64,000 nt of DNA from the NCBI RefSeq assembly GCF_025024155.1, contig NW_026251765.1, positions 124,001-188,000 of the forward strand, read 5' to 3'. The DNA comes from Gamsiella multidivaricata (taxonomy: Eukaryota > Mortierellomycota > Mortierellomycetes > Mortierellales > Mortierellaceae). Positions 2,348 to 48,591 of the stretch are shown piece by piece (position 1 is the stretch's first letter; the number at the start of each line of letters is the position of its first letter). The translations under genes and the position numbers were made by a program. The notes beneath the pieces are model-generated. The model was not told where the DNA came from, made no database searches, and saw nothing but the letters and a program-made list of their open reading frames with translations.

Positions 2348-3519
2348 ATGAACATTCGCGAGGCCACCGTACGTTCAATGTCGGATTCCAGGATGCGCTA
2401 TTTGTCCCAACCATTCAACACGTGGTGATAACACCGATTTTTCTATCTTTGTACACTCTGAATGCCAGCTGGATGATATGATCCCCATGCAGAACTGCAA
2501 CCTGCACAACCTGCCCGAGAACTATCAAATGAAATACTGTAAGTGCACAGTTCTGGAACAGAATCCTGGGCTCAGCTTGACATTTTGCAAGAAAACAGTT
2601 CTCTTTGCGTTGTCTCACGTCAACAATACTAACCCTCGATATCACCCGATCGACCCGACTTTTAGACTTTTACCATTCATTGACATGGCCTCAGCTCTCA
2701 TACGTCGCAGAGGACGAGAAGGGCAGAATCATTGGATACGTTCTTGCCAAGCTGTAAGGATGTTGGACAACGAGGGATTGTGACTTAACAATCCAACGAG
2801 GCATACAGCTGGGCTAACAGGATCTCGACACCTTTCTTGTTCAATTGGTACCAATAGTGAAGAGGATCCTGCTGCTGAGCCACATGGTCACATTACATCC
2901 CTGTCAGTAATGCGCACATACCGCCGTCTCGGAGTTGCTGAAAAGCTGATGACCCAGTCCCGTAAGCCTGTGTTTTACACTGAATTTTCATCGTTAAAGG
3001 ACTCGGTGGAAGGCTTTTCAGCAAGTCAGCGGGATAGACATGGCTGGACTTGTCAGCAAACTTTCACAACATTAACTCCAACGAAGATCAATGGAGAGTG
3101 AACTAGTGAATCTTCTTGGATTTGAACGTTCCCCTTGGATTCAGTCGTCTCAGGAATACGCTCCGCATCGTGAGCTCCATGTTCAAGGACTCTCTGAATT
3201 TGACCAAAGTATCTCTGTTGCGGCTATATCTGTTTTCTCGTTTCGTTAGAGAATGCTATGCGCGACGTGTTCAACTGCAAATACGTCTCACTCCATGTCC
3301 GCAAGAGCAACCGTGCTGCTCTTCAATTGTATAGGGATACTCTCAAATTCACGTAAGATATCTCTTTCGGCTGTCACCAAAGATAGATGTTACTTGTTTT
3401 AACACAGTGTATACATTCTGACCTTTTACTTTATCCTATGCAGTGTTCAGGATATCGAGAAGAAGTACTATGCCGACGGCGAAGATGCCTACGCTTGCCG
3501 CAAGGTCTTGCTGGAATAG
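2348..3519 (+). CDS. NAA10: N-alpha-acetyltransferase 10, catalytic subunit of NatA
   Basis: Six exons join into a 153-residue protein: 2348-2368, 2469-2538, 2666-2753, 2858-2961, 3250-3352, 3444-3519, all with GT-AG introns. It is a GNAT-fold acetyltransferase that, with NAA15, acetylates the N-termini of nascent proteins (Ser/Ala/Thr/Gly after Met removal) at the ribosome. The N-terminus MNIREAT continues into [20 protein letters not shown], the hallmark start of the family. The acetyl-CoA-binding loop RRLGVA lies in exon 4. The [15 protein letters not shown] segment in exon 5 and [10 protein letters not shown] near the C-terminus are also typical. Length matches the short fungal form, without the long acidic tail of the animal protein. 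Each exon is too short to be noticed alone. The 3' end is only 112 bp from the convergent Fanzor locus. Confidence 0.96.
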
Positions 3520-3631
3520 TTTCATTTTTCTTCTTGAAAACAGGACTATCTGAGCGCTATCTACGTCATCGTAAATTAATCAACGCCCCTGTAATCATCA
3601 CGTGGGTGTGTGTGACCGTACATACAAAATA

Positions 3632-5490
3632 TTAAAGTTCTTTGGCCAATTTTCTTGGACGTTCCTGCTGAGTCGAACTGGAGGTCGATCGTTTTTTCCG
3701 AGATCGAGTACCACCGGCCTGGGTCGGTGGGGTGGAGTCACTGATTCCGACAGCCGCCTCGACGCTTGTCCCTTGTCCTGAACTCGATGATTCCATCCAT
3801 GGATACCTGCCGTCTGCTGTAACAGGGTGAAGATATCGCGGTCGCTCTTGGTACAACAGGTACTCTCGTACAATATGGGACATATTCTCGGCTGCCATGA
3901 CATCTCTGTGGTTATACCGTCCACAGTGGGGACAGAAGAATTGTCGAAGGGTGACTTCGGCCACAAACCGGTGGCAATCCGGACATTTCTTTGAGGTATA
4001 AAACTCGTTAAGACCGACGGCAATATACCCAAGGGACCGCGCCTAATTACAACAATTAAAATAAGTTATTCATCTGCACTCAGTCCTCAGAAAATATTGT
4101 CAATGATACAAAAAATAAAACGTCTGCTTACCAGAGGGACAAAGTATGACAAAAACGGCGAGTGGAGAGACGACAGTCGACTACTGCTCCCGAACTGGCC
4201 AAGACCCACACCAATCAACACTGGATTATCATTGGCTCGACGTTCACCAATGCTGCCGCCAACGATTCCAAGCAGACTGTTGGCAATAGCCTGGTACTCG
4301 ATGTGCTTGGCTCTCTCCATGTCCCATGTGTGCTTCTTGAATCGAAAGTTGTCCCCGTTATAGAACTCCAAGAGTCGGTTCTTGACTTTTTCCAACTCCT
4401 CAATATAGTTGGTGACACTGGTGTCTGGACCTCGGAGAGGTGAGAGCTGGGACTCGATATGCGCAGTCGACTGTAACCCGATATCCGGTTTCAATTGATG
4501 TTGCCGCTCTGGACCCTCTGGTTTCAGTTGCTTCTCGTCCTTGAGCCAGCGTCTATATCGGAAGACAGGCTGCATCACGGCCTTCTGATTGACGGCAAGA
4601 TTGTGGTGAGGGATCTTGTCAGACGCTGTCGTTGTTGCTGGCGGTGTTGAAGTTGTTTGTGCCTCCAAAGACGGCTTTTGCATCAGATCCTGCGGTGTTG
4701 TTGTGGAGTAAGAGGCGATAGGAAATGCGCCATTGAAGGAAGTGGACTCGTCCTTGTTCATCGATTTTCCTAGTAGGTATGCATATGCTCCAACGACAAA
4801 AGCTTGTCCTGCGTCAAGGGTGAGGATCTTGATATCTTTAGGATCGACACCAGGCCAAAGTCTCGCCACATCGTCTTTGGTTCGGACAACGTTTCGGATC
4901 TCCGTCAAAAAATCACTGGTACCGTGAAGTGTTGAAGTCAATCGAGGAGGTAGGCGATCGCCGGGCAACCGTTTGTATTTGACTGACAGAAGTTCCCTGA
5001 CTTTGGAACACAGGAGCTGCATAGTGAATCCGTCAGTTCGTAAGGACCCCCTGAGAAAATATCCTTTGCGGGCATAGGTCTCCGGTCTGAACTCTGGATC
5101 GTCCAGCATCTGCAAGTGGGTCTCGAGATCATCAAGGGATAACAACTTGATCGCAGCGCGGTGTCCAGCCTTGCCTCTCTTGCGACTGGTCAGGTCTTCG
5201 GGATCGATATCGACGATGAGGTGCTTGATGAGAAAGCCTGGTTCTTTTCCTCCTATCCACTCCTCAACATTCCGCATGGATGTGCAGACGGTACCGACCA
5301 GTTCCTGAACCTGTGCCCTCAGTGCGCCTCCGCGGTTGAAAAAGAACATGGCCAGTTGTCACTCTGTGAAACTGACAAAAGGTTGCTTCGCCGTCGACAT
5401 GGGAATAATCCTACGAGGGTTTGGACTCAATTTGTTGATCGCGAGGTAGTTTTCGATAGCAGATACCTCCTCTTGGATCTCCACGTTACT
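3632..5490 (-). other. Fanzor (TnpB/OrfB-like) RNA-guided nuclease domain of the fusion locus
   Basis: The segment contains an N-terminal helical and beta region, then ILTLDAGQAFVVGAYA with the RuvC-I Asp at about 4815-4813. A linker and a conserved pair, HNLAVNQKAV and FYNGDNFRFKKHTWDMERA, follow, then VLIGVGLGQFGSSSRLSSLH. Across the intron comes GLNEFYTSKKCPDC with Glu near 4006-4004. Then FFCPHCGRYNHRDVMAAENM carries the second Cys pair and the RuvC-III Asp at 3904-3902. The Glu lies next to the zinc ribbon instead of in the usual RuvC-II strand, which is the rearranged arrangement reported for eukaryotic Fanzors. Fanzors use an omega RNA to cut DNA. No omega RNA was located; the space downstream of the stop before NAA10 is 112 bp. 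Confidence 0.85.
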
Positions 5491-6523
5491 CGTTGACCTT
5501 GTCGTTTGATCCTGGCAGCCTCGCGCACAGCGTTTCGGATACAGAGGGCAACTTCCTGTTGAACGGTACCGTCGTTTGGCAGAGCTCGTCTGAGGTTAGC
5601 GGATAGAGTACCGACGTTCAAAGTAGACGTTGGGTGCTGGTATTGTAATAACCGTGTAATAGCGAGCTTGCGGGTGGCTGCACTCGAATCGGACAACGTT
5701 TTGAATTTGGGCTTGGGCTTGGGCTTGGGCTCGTCGCTGGAGGGCTCAAGCTCGTCTTTTGCTTCAGGCTCCTTGTAAGGCTTGAACTTGTAGAGCTTCA
5801 TCTTGACTGGAGGTGGGGGGTTTGTTGCCCCTGTCCTCGTCTTGAATGAGTAACGATGGTGATTTCGTGGGAGTTGCGTCCTTGGAAGCGGCGGGTGACC
5901 GTTTGACTCCTGAGACGGTAATGTGGTCGGAGGGTTATCCTGTAGATTCGGTGCAGGTTGTTGTGGTTGTGCTGAGGATGGTTGCGGTGATGGCGGCTGT
6001 GGTAAGCGCGACCCAAGGCCAGGCTTCAACATAGCTGGAGACTCAACTGTCCTATATCGAATGAAAGACTGCGAGGAGCGGAGGCGGATGATCTGATCCT
6101 TGCGAGTACTATTGACATCAAAACAATAAGTAAGGTGAGCTGTGAGATGATTGCCGATGCCAAGTCCTAAATGCCGTGCGATATTGATCAGAAATATAGC
6201 ATACCTTGGTTGCAGTTGTGCGCGAAAATCCTTGTTCTCCTGGTACATGGCACAAAGATCCTTGAGTCGTTTGTAAAGTTCACTGTAGGACGAGACGCCG
6301 GACAAAGGGCGAGGATCGCTGACAGGCGTCTGTTGAAGATCAACAAAGACTCTGAGTGCAAGTTCAAGTGTTCTGTTGTCTGTGTTCTTTAAAACGACCT
6401 TGGAGTTTTCCAAATATGCATTCACCGTCTGTCGCACATCTGCAAAAATAGGGTAAAAAAAAGTAGAAATATATATATATATTAGTTAGCTCGCTCCTTA
6501 ATACTGTGATCATTGATATTTAC

Positions 6524-7292
6524 CTTGTTTCTTGATCGTCTTGATAATCGAAAAGTTGGTCGCCGGTCCAAGAGAGTAGATATTTTTTCCGTAGTCGTTG
6601 TTGGAGGCAACAGCGAGGGCCGTGAGTTGGATCCTGGACACATCGAGAACCTCACAGATATCCGATATCTTGTAGATCAGAATCAAGTTCTTTGAAATCG
6701 GGCGCCACAAGGTTGACACGGATGGGTACGCGAGCATATCGCTATCCGCAGACACGACAATATCATCAGATCTGCAATCCCGAGCGATCACAACATCAGC
6801 TTCCGTCTCGCGTCGCTGAATGTTCCACCCCTCGTCCTGCATATACTTGACAAATGCATCACGGATGGGCAGGGATCAATAGAAGGAGGACGCAAGACTG
6901 GTCCAGGCATCGGCAAAGTGTCGCTTACGGACCTTGAGGTTGTTATCGATCCGTCTTTGTAGTTCATCCACACTTTCTTTGCATCGCTTAGTGGTCTTCT
7001 CCCGAGCTTCTTGGCGGATCTGAACAGTGAACTCCTTCTCCTCTGCCTGGACTCCGTCGACGTAGATAATGATGTTTTCCTTGGTCCCGAACCGCATGAC
7101 ATCCAGCTCTAGGATCGTATGGGCCATCTCGATGGAGTTTCGTGTATAAGCATTCCTGATGACTGAAAAGCGAGAGAGAAGGTCGACTCTTCTGGTGGCG
7201 GTGCTCAAGGTTGTTGACGCGGCTGATGGGTAAAGTACAGAGGGTTGGTAACCCTTCTTACGAAGAAAGGCGTACCAGCCTTTAAGACCCAT
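6524..7292 (-). other. FEN1/XPG (Rad2-family) nuclease domain of the fusion locus
   Basis: The acidic residues expected of a flap endonuclease are all readable: Asp in RRVDLLSR (XPG-N first metal ligand), Asp in IYVDGVQAEEK (the FDGxxxxxK-like position), the Glu pair in RETEADVVIA, the Asp pair in VVSADSDMLAY (XPG-I), and Asp in NNDYGKNIYSLGPATNF, the helix-3-turn-helix region. The domain is interrupted only by the TGA at 6878-6876, which lies between the XPG-N and XPG-I halves in an unchanged reading frame. In this superfamily the domain binds branched DNA and cuts 5' flaps; whether it acts with the Fanzor part is unknown. Confidence 0.85.
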
Positions 7293-7789
7293 CACTTCCT
7301 GTACGTCGAGTGGTGCGATGAGAGAGCTGCTGTCGCATGTGTAGTGTTTAGCTGAAGTAATGTGATCGATTCAATGGAAAAGAGGTCGGATGTCGGGAAT
7401 CTGCAAAGACGATGAGGTTATGAGGTTTAAAGTAAGGAAGGAAAACGAGTGATCAGTGCTGTAACGCGTGGGTTCATGTCAGAGTTTAGCTCTGATTGGT
7501 ATTGTCATGTGACGCTAGACGCGTCTAAGAAAGGATCAACGTCGCCCTCATCACAGAAAGCTCCATGATGTAAAGATGAGCAAAGGCAGCACCGAAACGT
7601 CTAGAACCATGTATTACTAATCAGGACCTTTATTCGTCTAATGATATAAGGAAGGACAGACTATGTAGTTGGACCACAGTTCATATACTCACAACAGTCT
7701 AGCCAATAAACAATCGTCTTCACACATTCGTCTTTGTTCACTCACCTTGTTCACTCGTCTCCCCTCGTTTTCACCTCGTTATTCCTCGC
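7293..7789. other. Upstream region of the Fanzor fusion locus, no gene seen
   Basis: About 500 bp between the Fanzor start and the SWIM relic. A small perfect stem (TCAGAG / CTCTGA around a 5-nt loop) lies near 7479-7495. The 7700-7800 part is a C/T-rich run of short repeats of TCG/TTC type. No open frame or terminal inverted repeat was recognised. It would contain the promoter of the fusion gene. Confidence 0.4.
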
Positions 7790-8314
7790 TCACCCACAAG
7801 TCTTACATATGATGTCCGTACAGACGAAGAATTCGCCATCATTGCTGCCTGTCGCTGCAACTATTATGCTCAACATCAGGCGCCGTGCAAACATATGTAT
7901 ATAACCGCAAAGGTCTATAAGGGCATGCAGATTTCTTATCGAGAGCCTTACGAAATTGACCACTTACAAGTACAGGCCGACCAGAATGATTTTGATCCTT
8001 CACCTGATTCAACACTTCCACCGTCTTTGGAGCAAACCCTTCCACCAGTAATCCTTCTTCTACTTCATAGGCAAAGAGCAGAAAAGGCGGAACAGAAAAG
8101 AATAGCCAGAGAAAAAGAACAGGAGCAGGAGCTTCAGGATCTTGAGGCCGATCTGAAAAACATGATATCGGAGATCGTCATTGCCGCTGACTCAACAAAG
8201 AAGAGGAAATGTACGCTCGAGTACTTCCAGATCACAATTGCAGGAGTAAGGAAGACTTTGCTTGAGGTGAAGGGCCTCAATACTGTCCAGGCGGGACAAA
8301 GATGCCAGAAATAA
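7790..8314 (+). pseudogene. SWIM zinc-finger fragment with coiled-coil tail, possible MULE-type transposase relic
   Basis: An open frame reaches the stop at 8312-8314. Upstream of the first in-frame ATG (7892) the same frame reads TYDVRTDEEFAIIAACRCNY and then PCKHMYITAKVY, giving the C-x-C-x(n)-C-x-H spacing of a SWIM zinc finger. An acidic and charged helical tail follows (ERQRAEKAEQKR-like, Lys/Glu/Gln-rich), plausibly a coiled coil. No start codon or upstream exon with catalytic residues was found, so it looks like the C-terminal remnant of a longer protein. SWIM fingers at this position are common at the end of Mutator-like transposases, which is the basis for the guess. It lies next to the Fanzor locus. 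The finger is fairly sure; the transposase origin is inference. Confidence 0.5.
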
Positions 8315-8585
8315 ATGTGCTGAAGCAGTTAGCCGTTGTCAAACAGGCACAAGGAATTGAGTCTGATGGACGGTCAGAAGATTGTGTTCCAAAATAGGAT
8401 GGTCCTTATTGCCACCTTAAAAAACTTATTTCCAAAAGTCCCTTCGATGACGTAATTAAGGATTCGATTCTAATCAAACCACTTGATCCCCTTGCTCTTT
8501 TATTGATGCACCGCTGCTGGTCGTGATTGACAAACGATCTTTGTGTGCCTCTTTGCTTTCTCATCAATCGATCGTCTTTGCCGTC

Positions 8586-9634
8586 ATGTTCTTTTTGGTA
8601 AAGTCAAGCTGTCACTTGTCGCTGATATTCGCGCTTGCTTGCAATCGTCCTGTAATACTTGACACTGATGCCTCGTCGCCTTCATCTTGCTCTAATACCC
8701 GACTTTAACTGGATATCCTGGACAATTTGCCCTATCGCAACTGGACCATGGACAAAACAGCGCAATCTCTCACATACGATCAACCTTCATCCGTCCTACT
8801 ATGGCCCGCACATGAAAGAGTTCCTGCTGAGGAACCTGTATGCTGATGTCGAAGGAACCTGTTCAGGACGAGTCGGCTTTATTATCTGTGTTTTGACCGT
8901 GACCAACATCAGTCCAGGAAAGGTCTTACCTGGCTCAGGCCTTGCAGAGTTCGTGGTCCAGTACCAGGCCATTGTCTTCAAACCGTACAAGGGGGAGGTT
9001 GTCGATGCGATCGTTACCAGTGTGAATCAGGTATACATGAATTCTGTTTGCTCACAGGGCACAGTGTAGTGCCAATGGCCCTAACATCTGCTTGGTTTTG
9101 CTGGAATAGATTGGCTTCTTTGCCGATGTTGGTCCTCTCCAAGTGTTTGTTGCCCAAAAGGTACTCTTTTTTTTTTTTGGAGGAGGGGGAGAAGGAGGAT
9201 GATTTGCACCGGAAGCAATTGTATGCTAATCGTCTGTTTATTTCACTACCGCAGTTGATGCCCAACGACTTCAAATTTGATTCCAACGGGCCATGTTACA
9301 GAGGAGACGATCAGGTATTGAAATAATGGCAGGAGCGACAACAACAGTAATAGGAAAAAATTGTTTTTTATTTAATCCTGAACTGCGAACTGTCATTGAT
9401 ATCACTTTAGATGATTGAAAAGAATGGACAAGTACGGCTCAAGATTGTCGGTCTGAAGCACCAGGCAACTCAGATTGTAAGTGATTCTATACAAGGGAGA
9501 CGCCCTGTTTACGCTATTACCATGCCACACATGTTGCTGATACAATTCTGCTCTCCTCTTTCTTTAATGCAACACTCTTTGGTTAGAACGCTGTCGGTAC
9601 GATAAAAGAGGATTACTTGGGTCAAATTCAATAA
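8586..9634 (+). CDS. RPB7: RNA polymerase II subunit Rpb7
   Basis: Six exons give 168 residues: 8586-8597, 8761-9030, 9110-9160, 9255-9314, 9411-9476, 9587-9634. Rpb7 pairs with Rpb4 to form the stalk of RNA polymerase II, which binds emerging RNA and helps initiation and mRNA decay coupling. The first exon codes only MFFL, the invariant N-terminus, and continues as RNLSHTINLHPSYYGP. Then come the tip domain (DVEGTCSGRVGFIICV), the junction (VFKPYKGEVVDAIV), the OB/S1-like domain and the invariant C-terminal GTIKEDYLGQIQ. Every junction keeps frame with GT-AG ends. Length fits the family (about 170). The 12-nt first exon could easily be missed by automated prediction. The 271 bp upstream, following the SWIM relic, would hold the promoter. 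Confidence 0.96.
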
Positions 9635-9793: not shown

Positions 9794-11444
9794 CTAATTG
9801 TTGGTGATAACAGCCGTGCTGACAGCAGCGCTGGTGAGTTTGGCATTAGCGATGACCTGCAGGATTTCTGCCAAGGACTGCTTCCATCCGTTCAGCCTCT
9901 GGCTGAGCTGCTGCCACTGCTGTGTGCCAAAGGTCCTGTAGATAGATCGGTTAATGGTCACAGTTCTCGAGACCTGGTTAAGCTTTGCCTCGACCAATCC
10001 TGCACGAATAACATCGATCACCCACAACTCAACCTCAGACTCATCCACCTCCAACGCCTTGGCAATCTCCTGATAACTCAATTCACGCGTCAGATTCTCG
10101 GATCCGAGCGAAGCGAGCGAAAGCAGACGGATCTTGCGCAGGGCCTCTTCCTCATCCAATCCGAGCTCCTGCTTGAGCAAACCGGCGTTCTTGGAGCTGA
10201 ATGCGTTGTAGTCCTGGACGTTTCCGCTCAAAAAGATTGAAAGGAGCTCGTATACCTTCTCGGACTTGAGATGCTGGACTGCATCAATCTTCAACAAGTT
10301 TTCGAAGTTGAGAACCTCGGACAAAGCGATCGATTCAGTAATGGCCCTCTTGGCATGGGACTTCTGAGAATCCAGCTCTGCGGTTTGGCTGTTGAATGTT
10401 GTGAGGTACTTGATCAGGAAATCATGAGATTGGTATCTATTTGGGTATCTCTGGTTAGTTCGCCATGATTTCGCTATTCCGTTTAAACTTCATGCCTCAA
10501 ATGCATTGTTAGACTAATGACTTACGGGTTTCCGGACGTCTTCAAGTGGTCTGCCAAGGTCAACAAAAGGGTGCGCTCAGCTTCGGGTGCGATGCCCCAC
10601 TCGCTGATCCAGGAGGGAACATACTGGAGCTGAGGGAGGACCAAATCCATGTCATCGCTTGCTACAGCCAAATCTACGATCGACGTGAAGACAGAGAGGC
10701 GGAGAGGAGAGTTGGCGGGAAGAATGTTGAAGATGTTGGACAACCTATGAGCGATGAGATAAAGTGGTTAGCAAATGCTTCGCTCTGCAGAGTCCATCAT
10801 TCGAGGCGAATAATGATCTACTCACACTTTGAACTTCAGAGGAGTCTTTTGTGCGGGTTCTGTAGTAAGTGTCTTCAAGACGGTCTCCAGATGGGCCTTG
10901 TTCGCATCAGGAACAACAACTGCGATGAGGAGATTGTAAGCAGACTCGAACTCTACAGTGATTTGAAAGTCAAGGCAGTCAGTACTGGACCGAAGTAGAT
11001 GATTTGCGACAAGATACAGTCATAGGCGCAGTCAGCACTGCATACCCTTTTCGGGAGCCTCCAAAAGCGTCTTGCTTTCCTTGACAATAACATTGACAGC
11101 CTCAGCATCCTTCTTGGAATCGACCAAGGAAGTAACCTCCTTGACAAAGGTCTCTGTCTCGTCACCGCGGAGAACGCCGATATATGTAGCCAGTTCGATG
11201 ACCTAAGTATGTATCGCGGAGAACTGTCCATTAAAGTCACCTCTTGATGCGTTCAGTAGCCTTGCCAAGACTCTTCTGGGGTGAATAGTGTAGCCTGGTA
11301 GACTGGAGGCAAGCCTACGATAACCGAAGTATAGTCCCTGTTGGATTGAACAAAAAAAATAAAAAAAAGAATGGCCCATCCTGAATAAAGCGGCCGTACC
11401 TGGTCCTGGAAAGGCGCGTCGATAAAGATCTGCTCGGCGGTCAT
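9794..11444 (-). CDS. EIF3M: Translation initiation factor eIF3 subunit M
   Basis: Five exons encode about 400 residues: 11444-11400, 11202-11046, 10952-10826, 10744-10526, 10448-9794. eIF3m is a PCI-domain member of the octameric eIF3 core, which recruits mRNA and the 43S complex in the cytoplasm. The N-terminal exons give a helical solenoid (VIELATYIGVLRGDETETFV, then EFESAYNLLIAVVVPDANKA). The last exon carries the PCI module with the family signature near the C-terminus, RTFGTQQWQQLSQRLNGWKQ. Start ATG 11444 gives MTAEQIFIDAPFQDQ. The first intron (11399-11203) contains an open frame but no family-like sequence, so I treat it as intron. The eIF3m gene lies downstream of, and on the same strand as, the Bem1-like gene. 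Confidence 0.93.
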
Positions 11445-45428: not shown

Positions 45429-45897
45429 CCTTCTTATTTTTTTTCCTGATCGTTGTTGCTGTTGCTGTTGTTGTTGCTGTTGTTGTTGCTGCTGCTGTTC
45501 CTGTTCCTGATGGTTTTTTTTTTTTTTTTTTCTTTTCATTTTTTTTGTTGTTGTTCCTGTTCGTTTTTTTTTTGTTCTTTTTTTTGTCCCTGCTCCTGAT
45601 AGTTTTTTTGTTGTTCCTGTTCCTGATTTTTTTTTTCTTTTTTTTTTTGTTGTTGTTCCTGTTCGTTTTCTTTTTCTTTTTCTTTTTCTTTTTCTTTTTC
45701 TTTTTCTTTTTCTTTTTCTTTTTCTTTTTTTTTTTCTTTTTCTTTCTTTTTTTCCTGTTCCTGTTCGTTTTATTATTTTTATTTTTTTGTTCCTGTTCCT
45801 GCTCGTTTTCTTTTTGTCCCTGTTCTTGTTCCTGATCGTTTTCTTTTTGTCCCTGTTCCTGTTCCTGATCGTTTTCTTTTTTTTTAGCTTTTCGCAT
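45429..45897. repeat. Compound polypyrimidine microsatellite (TTTTTC, TTGTTCC, TTGCTG)
   Basis: About 470 bp of almost pure T/C/G sequence. There is a (TTG/CTG) block at 45449-45500, then mixed TTTTTTTTGTTCCTG units, a long TTTTTC hexamer array at about 45668-45745, and repeats of TTCTTTTTGTCCCTGTTCC. The reverse strand gives false Lys-rich and Gln-rich open frames. Purine/pyrimidine strand bias this strong can form triplex DNA. Confidence 0.95.
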
Positions 45898-46159
45898 TCA
45901 ACCGATAAAAAGTGTACGAGAGTGCGTGAGTATGTGTACGTGAGTTTGTGTGCAACTGTGAATGTGTGCGCAAAGTGAAGGTCGGTGTACGGAATGATTT
46001 CGTGTGGCGAGTGGACTGTGATATGAAAGATGGAAGGTGCAGAGCGGAGAGATGTAAGAGCGGGGAGATGAAAAGGCGGAGAGGGGAGGTAGGTCTTTAT
46101 TTGTGTCACTTACTTTCTTGGTGGTCCGTTCGCTTGTCGCCATGGATGCGCCCTAGATA

Positions 46160-46325
46160 CATGTGCAAGAGAAAGAAGAAGAAAAGGCAAAGCAAGAAAA
46201 AAAAAAAAAAAAAAAAAAAAAGCAAAGCAAAAAAAAGCAAAAAGCAAAAAGCAAAAGAAAGAAAGAAAGAAAAAACCAAAAATGAAGTAAAAGAAAGTAA
46301 AAAGAAACAAAAAAACGAAAGAAAA
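46160..46325. repeat. Poly-A/AAAG-rich microsatellite
   Basis: A near-continuous purine tract on the plus strand with A-runs up to about 23 and AAAAGCA, AAAGAAAG and AAGTAAAAG units. Confidence 0.9.
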
Positions 46326-48591
46326 GCCCTCCGAATATCAGACAGTCTTTGTATTCATTGGCGATCTGAAGATGCCTTGAAAAATAGAGCTGTTCATCAT
46401 GTCAAGGAAGGAAAGCAGCTCCACAAGAATAAGCAGAACGCGTCTTGGCTGGCCCTCAAGTGCTGTTCAGATAGCCTGTACTCAATAGTAACTCGAAGGA
46501 GGCTATATGCCAGAGCCGATCATCATGTGTATAAAAGAAGGCAAACAGCGACACAAAGATCCCATCAGTCAAGGAAACAGTTCTAAAGGGGAACAATACG
46601 CAAAGAAAAAACCACAGAAACGTGGAAAAAGAGAGGCTCAACCCCATTAGCCAACACCCAAAGCTGTCCCCCGGAGCTCTCTCTTTTTTTACTTCAGTCG
46701 TTGGATCAGACCACATATGGAAGGTCATCATGTCCAGAAGAAACGTGGAGCCCTCGTCCCAAAAGAACGCAATCCGTCAATCAAAAGTGCGTATTCCTCT
46801 CCCCGCTCTCTAGAGCTCGAACCACTCATCCTTGTTCATTGGAATCCCCACCCAAAGTACCAAAAAAGCAAAAAAAAAAAAAAAAGAGCAAAAGCAAAAG
46901 CAAAAGTAACAACAGAACAGAAAAAGAAAGGGCCAGAGAAAAAGGGTGGCAAATGGTCACAAGCGTGTTTTTACCAAATATGGTGGGCAACTGGAAGACA
47001 AACTCATATTTTCATTTACCTCGAGATCCCATTCGCGGTAAGGGGACGCCTGAGTATCAACCGACTGCCACAGGTCTGCAGCCCTTGAATGGTTGTCTCT
47101 TAGAAGAGGAGGCCGGGCACCTAGCAATAGCGAGAGAAAAAAATAGAGAAAGAGAAGGATAAGGAGCAGGAGAAGGAGAAGGAGAAGGAGATATATATAT
47201 ATATATACAAGAAGTGCAGAGGAACAAGGCTGAGGCGGACAAAAATGGGAGAGAGTAATGAGGAAGAAGGGCAAGAGACAGCAGAAGTGAAGGACTGAGA
47301 GTGAAAGTGGGAGTAGCTGAAGTAGGGTAAATGTGGAGAAGAAGGAGGGAAAAGAGCTTACCTTGAAGACCGGGTGAGAGAAGAGAAGAGAAAGAAGAGA
47401 AGGGGGAAAAGAGGAGGGCTTCATATCCCCACCTCGATAGACACTCCTTCCTCGACAAACGGTAAACGTCATCGCTACTATCTGCAGTGGGGAGAGAATG
47501 TCTTCGGGCAGCCTCCTATCGGTATAGTCTCTTTGGGTCTTTCATATGAAAGAAAAAGAGATAGTGGGCGATAGACAGCACGGAGACAGTGGACAGAGAC
47601 AAGCAAGGAGATAATGATGGCAAAATAAATCTGGCCGGTGACCTATCGGGACATGAAATATACTTTGGCGGTAAGATAGCCTGGTCTTGGCAGCAAAGGA
47701 GCAAAGAGAGAGAGTGAGTGAGTGAGAGAGGATGAGAGAAAGAAGGGGAGAAAGAAAAAGAGAAGGAGAGGAAGAGAGGTCTACTTTGATGAGCATGCAA
47801 GCATGAAAAAGATAGAAAGCAATAGACAGAAAAGACATGGCAAAGGTAGTGCCACCATAAGAGTGTCTTTTGTGAGTGCAGTCAGCACGTCTATCGAAGC
47901 AGCCAATGATGTAATGATGTACCTGGGAGTGTGGGAGGGATAAAGACACAGGAACAAGCAGCAAGGAAAGAGAACGATGATCATATGGGTCACATACAGC
48001 GATATTATTCTTTCGCGGCACTATGCGGGCATACAATAGTCATTAAAGACAATACATCGCGAGTATGTTGGACTCGGACCAAATTGTCTATTCTAGTACA
48101 ACCACTGCTGGCTGCATCCTTTCCAGCTTTTTTCGTATTTCATCAAGTGCTCACATATGGCTGAGCCGCATTTATCCCCTCCTAAAGAAAATCAACCTGC
48201 TACAGACAACACCACCTAGTCGACACACGTCGTAACTGCGGATAGCAGCACTGGAAGTGGCAGAAAGGGCTGTCAGCAATGACACACGCGTCTCTCTCCA
48301 AGGATTGTCCGTGTTTATGCGCATACTCCACAGCACTTCATTTTTTCCCTATTAGTATAACCCACACGAGACATCTGCAGTTGTGGTAAAAATGGGCGCA
48401 GTCCACAATTTCGAAGAAATCCAAACCCAAACTTTGTTTTACACGCCGTAACAGCTTACGACTTTCAGAAGGATAAGAGAAAGGGGATGATAACCACAAG
48501 TTCGCTTATCTACTCCATTCCTTTCATCAGCCTTCTCTCGCATCACCCTACTTTCGCGTACCTCTTCTTCGTACAATCTACTTCCTTTGCC

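What the first reader, a model, noticed from the sequence alone, without database searches (positions are those of the whole stretch)
3632..7292. A flap-endonuclease (FEN1/XPG) domain fused to a Fanzor RNA-guided nuclease
The same minus-strand locus encodes a full Rad2/FEN-type active-site set at the N-terminus and a full Fanzor core (RuvC Asp, relocated Glu, zinc ribbon, RuvC Asp) at the C-terminus, connected by spliced, largely in-frame sequence. TnpB and Fanzor proteins are usually described with only a helical/WED region before RuvC. A structure-specific DNA nuclease in front suggests an element that couples RNA-guided cutting to processing of flaps or branched intermediates, for example to help homing, copying or strand repair after the cut. 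I do not know whether this fusion has been formally described; it may be a distinct eukaryotic Fanzor lineage.
Basis: partly seen in the sequence, partly recalled or inferred. Interest (0 to 1): 0.95.

Follow-up and report, generated by a model that had tools for sequence, protein, structure and literature searches.

The report
Flap nuclease fused to RNA-guided nuclease
In a family of soil fungi, jumping genes carry a single gene that joins a DNA-flap-trimming nuclease to a CRISPR-like RNA-guided nuclease called Fanzor; the copy seen here is broken, but related proteins are predicted as one chain in many species, which hints at an enzyme that both makes a programmed DNA cut and trims the ends.

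The parts
6524..7292 (-). Exon 1: FEN/XPG-type nuclease domain (MGLKGWY, RVD, YVDG..K..R, TEAD, DSD, NDY motifs); internal TGA at 6878-6876
   Evidence: residue mapping; PDB profile; fold of a relative
6440..6523 (-). Intron 1, 84 bp (GTAAAT...TTTTGCAG)
   Evidence: agrees with P0001 protein
6205..6439 (-). Exon 2: C-terminal part of the FEN domain
6109..6204 (-). Likely in-frame 96-bp intron 2 (GTATGC...CAATAG; P0001 reads QQPST across it)
   Evidence: inferred by protein homology
5488..6108 (-). Linker (low complexity, YSFKTRT motif) and start of the Fanzor N-lobe (TLNVGTLSANLRRA)
5486..5488 (.). Deletion scar: 575-581 bp present in six sister copies is missing here; most of the N-lobe and the third intron are lost
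4132..5485 (-). Fanzor core, RuvC-I Asp in LTLDAGQA; TGA at 5361-5359
4043..4131 (-). Intron before the zinc ribbon, 89 bp (GTAAGC...TAATTAG)
3632..4042 (-). Alternative Glu (GLNEFYTS), C4 zinc ribbon, RuvC-III Asp (HRD), C-terminal tail; PF07282
   Evidence: E 3.7e-12
3535..3631 (-). 3' non-coding tail to the right end of the element; hairpin just after the stop codon and a terminal stem with two compensatory pairs between two families: candidate guide-RNA scaffold
7703..8314 (+). Remnant of the divergent transposase gene (SWIM-like CxC...CxH segment at 7811-7939); no catalytic part found in this copy
   Evidence: no Pfam family at E 0.01 for this ORF
3535..8458 (.). Whole element remnant; homology with sister copies runs from 3535 to 8433, left-end motif TAATTACGTCAT near 8458

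Best explanation
SHOWN by computation: one spliced gene of a Mutator-like DNA transposon of Mortierellomycete fungi encodes a predicted bifunctional protein, mostly 1,200-1,335 residues long: an N-terminal FEN/EXO1/XPG-family domain with a complete predicted active site, a flexible linker of roughly 200 residues, then a Fanzor with N-lobe, RuvC, relocated Glu and zinc ribbon. It points away from the transposase across a short shared intergenic region and runs to the right end of the element. INFERRED: the Fanzor half binds an RNA made from the right end of the element, uses the flanking host sequence as guide, and cuts the empty site left after excision. The tethered FEN half then trims 5' flaps or resects the 5' ends so that repair copies the element back from the sister or homologue rather than rejoining the ends.
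Against: No RNA-seq, no biochemistry. All fused proteins are automatic gene models. Every copy that I read closely in this genome (window, L025, L029, L033, L034, L037, L042-L044) seems damaged somewhere; within families pN/pS is 0.41-0.79 for FEN and 0.32-0.99 for the core, as for decaying copies. In seven deeper family comparisons FEN gives 0.44-0.63 and the core 0.43-0.53, FEN being the less constrained in five of the seven, with synonymous sites saturated. 29 of 97 FEN loci have no Fanzor found downstream and 54 of 109 TNB loci have no FEN found upstream, partly from decay and contig ends. DPG, near-exclusive in published Fanzors, is mostly absent. The Fanzor fold was not modelled (server busy). 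The role in repair is inference only.
Confidence: 0.6

Rival explanations
1. The FEN half serves the transposase, not the RNA-guided cut: it trims flaps or end structures made during Mutator excision or integration, and it is fused to Fanzor only so that both accessory activities are made together.
For: The gene sits head-to-head with the transposase, so co-expression is likely.
Against: Fusion to Fanzor rather than to the transposase, and co-divergence of FEN with Fanzor (co-divergence with the transposase was not tested).
Confidence: 0.25
2. One nuclease is a passenger: FEN acts only as a DNA-structure-binding module, or in some members the RuvC half is dead and Fanzor merely guides FEN to its target.
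For: D185 is G or N in 4 of 23 and the alternative Glu is Lys in 3 of 23 aligned proteins.
Against: Most of the 25 aligned members keep both sets; between the two best-comparable families FEN is as constrained as the core (0.31 against 0.36), though not in several deeper comparisons.
Confidence: 0.12
3. Two neighbouring genes wrongly joined by gene predictors.
For: Some annotated models are split, such as P0199/P0013 on one 5.9-kb contig and P0177/P0064; the latter pair leaves the linker and N-lobe uncovered.
Against: The P0199/P0013 split and the models P0027, P0037, P0041, P0046 break inside the Fanzor half, not between the domains; the frame is open across the junction in L027; canonical short introns; nearly constant spacing in diverged families.
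Confidence: 0.06
4. A decayed relic without present function anywhere.
For: The window copy is dead and many copies hold stops.
Against: Apparently complete models in several genera; left ends of nine copies 95-100% identical show recent mobility of one family; purifying selection between families.
Confidence: 0.1

Closest known systems
Fanzor1 (Bao and Jurka 2013, PMC3627910; Saito et al. 2023, PMC10432273; Yoon et al. 2023, PMC10711439; passages seen), including Fanzor1 in MuDr elements of Rhizopus, Phycomyces and Mucor
   Same: RuvC-I Asp, alternative Glu just before the zinc ribbon, C4 ribbon, RD; carried by a eukaryotic DNA transposon, here too Mutator-like; coding end next to the right end of the element
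   Different: An N-terminal FEN/EXO1-type nuclease domain and long linker; DxG mostly not DPG; transposase head-to-head in the less deleted copies, whereas the published MuDr-Fanzor elements encode none. The text of none of the three papers holds flap, XPG or Mortierella (word searches)
FEN1 / EXO1 / XPG (Rad2) structure-specific nucleases
   Different: 13-19% identity to the solved structures; part of a transposon protein, followed by Fanzor
MULE-Mucorales / MuDR DNA transposons (Mob DNA 2019, PMC6446971, table passages)
   Same: SWIM-type transposase; 35-bp terminal inverted repeat (28/35) in L029
   Different: An extra FEN-Fanzor gene; no clean target duplication was shown here; that paper's text holds no XPG, TnpB or Mortierell
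TnpB / TranC / Cas12
   Same: Zinc ribbon and RuvC-III matches (LaTranC E 7.6e-6, TnpB-like L79 0.0019, TnpB 0.21)
   Different: The matches cover only the C-terminal part; relocated Glu here; a FEN domain in front

Membership tests
Fanzor | Alternative RuvC-II Glu six residues before the zinc ribbon | tested here: met
   20 of 23 proteins with a residue there; Lys in 3 (P0014-P0016); regex 32 of 43 complete Fanzor halves
Fanzor | Motif D-X(125,275)-[TS][TS]-xx-C4 zinc finger-X-RD | tested here: met
   33 of 43 complete Fanzor halves; 243 residues from D916 to TS in P0004
Fanzor | DPG at RuvC-I (near-exclusive in published Fanzors, PMC10711439) | tested here: not met
   P in 1 of 24 aligned proteins, otherwise G, A, L or M; P in 3 of 36 regex matches among 43. 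So it is filed as Fanzor-like, a diverged lineage, not as a typical Fanzor
Fanzor | Carried by a eukaryotic transposon | tested here: met
   head-to-head with a SWIM-type transposase, precise ends
Fanzor | Right-end guide RNA | tested here: inconclusive
   hairpins at the right end, two compensatory pairs in 8 sequences of two families; z -0.45, -2.18, -2.07
Fanzor | Overall Fanzor fold (WED, REC, RuvC, NUC) | not tested
   structure job never accepted; SpuFz1 (8gkh) only E 0.06 by profile
Fanzor | RNA-guided DNA cleavage | not testable with these tools
   bench assay needed
FEN1/EXO1/XPG superfamily | Fold | tested here: met
FEN1/EXO1/XPG superfamily | Seven active-site carboxylates and arch Lys/Arg | tested here: met
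   weakest position D185, 19 of 23. Equivalence to FEN1 numbering is recalled
FEN1/EXO1/XPG superfamily | 5'-flap or 5'-exonuclease activity | not testable with these tools
   bench assay needed
Mutator-like transposon | MULE transposase domain | tested here: inconclusive
   conceptual transposase from L037: SWIM over cut-off, MULE E 0.0011 below cut-off, ISL3-type DDE E 4.5e-4 below cut-off
Mutator-like transposon | Terminal inverted repeats and 8-11 bp target duplication | tested here: inconclusive
   L029: inverted repeat 28/35, no duplication seen; the window, L021, L025, L027, L028 and L037 gave no clear inverted repeat. L037: direct repeat AGCGCTTGTAGT abuts the right end, but its left copy ends 8 bp outside the shared left boundary

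The most novel reading that the evidence does not exclude
A self-contained two-step enzyme: an RNA-guided nuclease that opens a chosen site and, in the same chain, an EXO1/FEN1-type nuclease that resects or de-flaps that very site to steer repair into homology copying, giving the transposon a built-in gene-conversion drive. It would be the first natural RNA-guided nuclease known to me with a fused structure-specific repair nuclease.
Probability: 0.4. Interest if true: 0.95.

Novelty: new variant of a known kind. Interest (0 to 1): 0.85.

Why it matters
Fanzors are thought to help transposons by RNA-guided cutting, but how the break is turned into a new copy is open. A lineage that has fused a repair nuclease to its Fanzor, and kept both active sites over deep divergence, makes the hand-off from cut to repair testable in one protein. 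Editing tools (recalled, not searched) already try to bolt exonucleases onto Cas enzymes to favour homology-directed repair; this would be a natural example.

Tried and rejected
Rejected: chance neighbourhood; merged gene models as the whole story. Viral origin: viral-contig scans found only zinc-ribbon-range matches for the Fanzor profile (4 loci) and none for FEN; the weak Pox_G5 Pfam match was not followed further. Homology ends that vary at the 5' side looked like retrotransposition at first; the precise left end in the young family and the head-to-head transposase argue for a DNA transposon. Rfam at gathering threshold and tRNA scan: nothing in the window. Guide-RNA structure: only suggestive. 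Structure of a whole fused protein (P0049, alignment A4): never accepted by the busy server. Foldseek pdb and viral searches: not accepted; only the pdb_via second look ran. Paper searches for Fanzor with FEN1, XPG, Mortierella, Rad2, Mutator/MULE, fused/domain/fungal, TnpB with flap endonuclease, and OrfB_Zn_ribbon with XPG gave no title or abstract that describes this fusion (listings only, the papers listed there were not opened except PMC6446971, word search); the Science Advances 2023 Fanzor survey is not held and supplements were not open to me.

Database counts depend on query length: two searches used single-domain queries, which favour one-domain proteins, so 112 FEN-only and 114 Fanzor-only of 276 are not frequencies of unfused genes. 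One search had 215 hits of which 120 were listed and examined; searches scored only the 8000 candidates sharing most words. Genome lists are lower bounds (102 of 203 candidates scored; 71 of 157). One search used 28 loci that I picked by hand, mostly taking the best-scoring piece. One search left out L024, whose FEN part is missing at a contig start. In one search one copy (L021) lacks the intron-1 acceptor AG.

Full report
WHAT THE WINDOW HOLDS. The window is G000:C134:124001-188000 of a 37.5-Mb fungal assembly in 180 contigs. Database proteins of Gamsiella multidivaricata lie on contigs of exactly the same lengths as C97, C124, C126 and C13 (455953, 310394, 736129, 580665), so I take it to be that species. 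On the minus strand, 7292-6524 encodes a FEN/XPG-type domain, continued after intron 1 (6523-6440) and a likely in-frame 96-bp intron (6204-6109) into a low-complexity linker and the first part of a Fanzor N-lobe; then comes the Fanzor core, an intron (4131-4043) and the zinc ribbon to the stop at 3632.

THE COPY IS DEAD. It has TGA at 6878-6876 and at 5361-5359, and at 5486-5488 it lacks 575-581 bp that all six close sister copies have (L021, L022, L025, L027, L028, L029). The case for a fusion must come from relatives.

RELATIVES CARRY BOTH DOMAINS IN ONE PREDICTED PROTEIN. A search with the read-through (X at the damage) gave 54 proteins, all named from genera that I know as Mortierellomycete (Gryganskiella, Entomortierella, Podila, Haplosporangium, Linnemannia, Mortierella, Dissophora, Benniella, Actinomortierella). 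With one profile for each half, 41 of these 54 carry both, 9 only the Fanzor half and 4 only the FEN half; over all three searches 50 of 276 carry both, FEN always N-terminal. Ten cover both profiles essentially end to end (P0001, P0004, P0007, P0008, P0020, P0026, P0029, P0031, P0033, P0049; 1,030-1,335 aa). The four FEN-only ones of the first search (P0027, P0037, P0041, P0046) run to residue 704-708 of P0001, at the third intron, inside the Fanzor half; the AD094 pair P0199/P0013 is also split inside the Fanzor half. P0177/P0064 of Dissophora ornata leave a gap over the linker and N-lobe, so that case stays open.

THE FRAME RUNS ACROSS THE JUNCTION. In L027 a 1,410-bp stretch matching P0001 residues 271-706 has no stop, whether or not the 96-bp intron is removed; L022 and L025 have one stop there and L021 two. 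The next intron is canonical (GTATGAG...TATAG) in all five sister copies checked.

THE FANZOR HALF. PF07282 matches 23 of 25; P0004 hits LaTranC (7.6e-6) and, weakly, TnpB-like structures (0.0019, 0.21). RuvC-I Asp 24/24, alternative Glu 20/23 (Lys in P0014-P0016), RuvC-III Asp 24/24. The Bao-Jurka motif is met by 33 of 43 complete halves. DPG, which Yoon et al. report as near-exclusive in Fanzors (PMC10711439, passages read), is found in only 1 of 24. I therefore call it a diverged, Fanzor-like lineage. Its fold was not modelled.

CO-EVOLUTION AND SELECTION. Distances of the two halves correlate in 28 fused proteins (Mantel r 0.79; best of 5000 permutations 0.39), and the two trees share many clades with some conflicts, such as the place of P0005/P0042 and P0014-P0016. 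In this genome, FEN and Fanzor identities to the window copy correlate over 28 hand-picked paired loci (Spearman 0.82). Between the two closest families pN/pS is 0.31 for FEN, 0.57 linker, 0.44 N-lobe, 0.36 core, 0.36 zinc ribbon. In seven deeper family comparisons FEN gives 0.44-0.63 and the core 0.43-0.53, with FEN the less constrained in five of the seven; synonymous sites are near or past saturation there, so these ratios are rough upper values. Within families FEN gives 0.41-0.79 and the core 0.32-0.99, as for decaying copies.

GENOME-WIDE PAIRING. Of 97 merged FEN loci, 55 have a TNB domain downstream on the same strand within 6 kb, mostly at 2.7-3.1 kb; 68 have TNB or core. Three have a TNB upstream. 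Random placement gives mean 2.5, maximum 7 over 500 trials. 29 FEN loci have no Fanzor found, and 54 of 109 TNB loci no FEN found; contig ends and decay explain some, and FEN-less Fanzor families may exist.

THE CARRIER. In L037 a divergent gene starts close to the FEN start and encodes a transposase-like protein (SWIM over cut-off; MULE and ISL3-type DDE domains below cut-off). Relatives of it lie head-to-head with FEN, 154-1062 bp apart, at 16 of 42 loci; one locus is arranged otherwise and 25 have no FEN within 4 kb; random mean 0.45, maximum 3. The window keeps only a SWIM remnant at 7811-7939. The left end of the L037 family is precise: apart from L037 itself, 12 of 13 matches begin at the same base and one begins five bases inside it; nine of them are 95-100% identical over the full or nearly full end. 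The right ends are precise as well. An inverted repeat (28/35) was found in L029 only, and no clean target duplication: in L037 a 12-bp direct repeat abuts the right end but lies 8 bp outside the left boundary. Bao and Jurka reported Fanzor1 in MuDr elements without transposase in Mucoromycotina (PMC3627910, passages read), so a Mutator link is known; the FEN domain and the accompanying transposase are the new parts.

CANDIDATE GUIDE RNA. The last 100 bases before the right end fold into a hairpin after the stop codon and a terminal stem in the alignment of two families; two pairs of the stem change on both sides. This is one event between two families, and single-sequence folds are weak (z -0.45 for the window, about -2 for two others).

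MECHANISM. Shown: gene layout, domain make-up, conserved active sites, constraint. Inferred: guide from the right flank, cutting of the empty site after excision, trimming or resection by FEN, copy-back. The closest folds are EXO1, the resection nuclease, and FEN1, the flap nuclease (tied in Z), which suits either end resection or flap removal. I give about 0.9 to the architecture and 0.4 to the mechanism.

NOVELTY. I found no description in the held papers (searches; word searches inside papers). That library leaves out most subscription journals and one main Fanzor survey, so a table entry elsewhere cannot be excluded. Public records name these proteins hypothetical, putative transposase, XPG-I or Cas12f1-like TNB domain proteins.

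Noticed in passing
window 3440-3535 (+): A GNAT gene (PF00583 on 2784-3101; its end reads like the NAA10 C-terminus, recalled) stops about 15 bp before the right end of the element, so the would-be guide of this copy lies in the end of a host gene.
   Followed up: partly
window 8656-9069 (+) and 9794-10489 (-): Host genes next to the element: RPB7/RPC25-like N-terminal domain and an eIF3m-like PCI domain.
   Followed up: no
window 3535-8433 against L021, L025, L027, L028, L029: The FEN half is 95-96% identical to all five, but the Fanzor half is only 77-90% to four of them and 95-98% to L025: copies look recombined near the deletion scar.
   Followed up: partly
P0014, P0015, P0016 (Mortierella sp. 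GBA35, AD031, NVP41): Lys in place of the alternative RuvC Glu and Gly at the first Asp of DSD: a sub-lineage that may have lost both nuclease activities.
   Followed up: no
G000:C28:70762, C134:62671, C8:46439: TNB loci of nearly equal score without FEN found upstream: perhaps a FEN-less Fanzor family in the same genome.
   Followed up: no
P0157: A Fanzor half of this lineage in Apophysomyces sp. BC1021 (Mucorales), 52% identical to P0004 over about half of the query: horizontal transfer or contamination.
   Followed up: no
G000 contigs C62, C121, C140, C12, C33: Several near-identical FEN-Fanzor copies end at contig ends, probably assembly breaks in a young repeat.
   Followed up: no
window 45514-47779: T-rich then A-rich tracts with strong skew, made of degenerate short repeats.
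   Followed up: no
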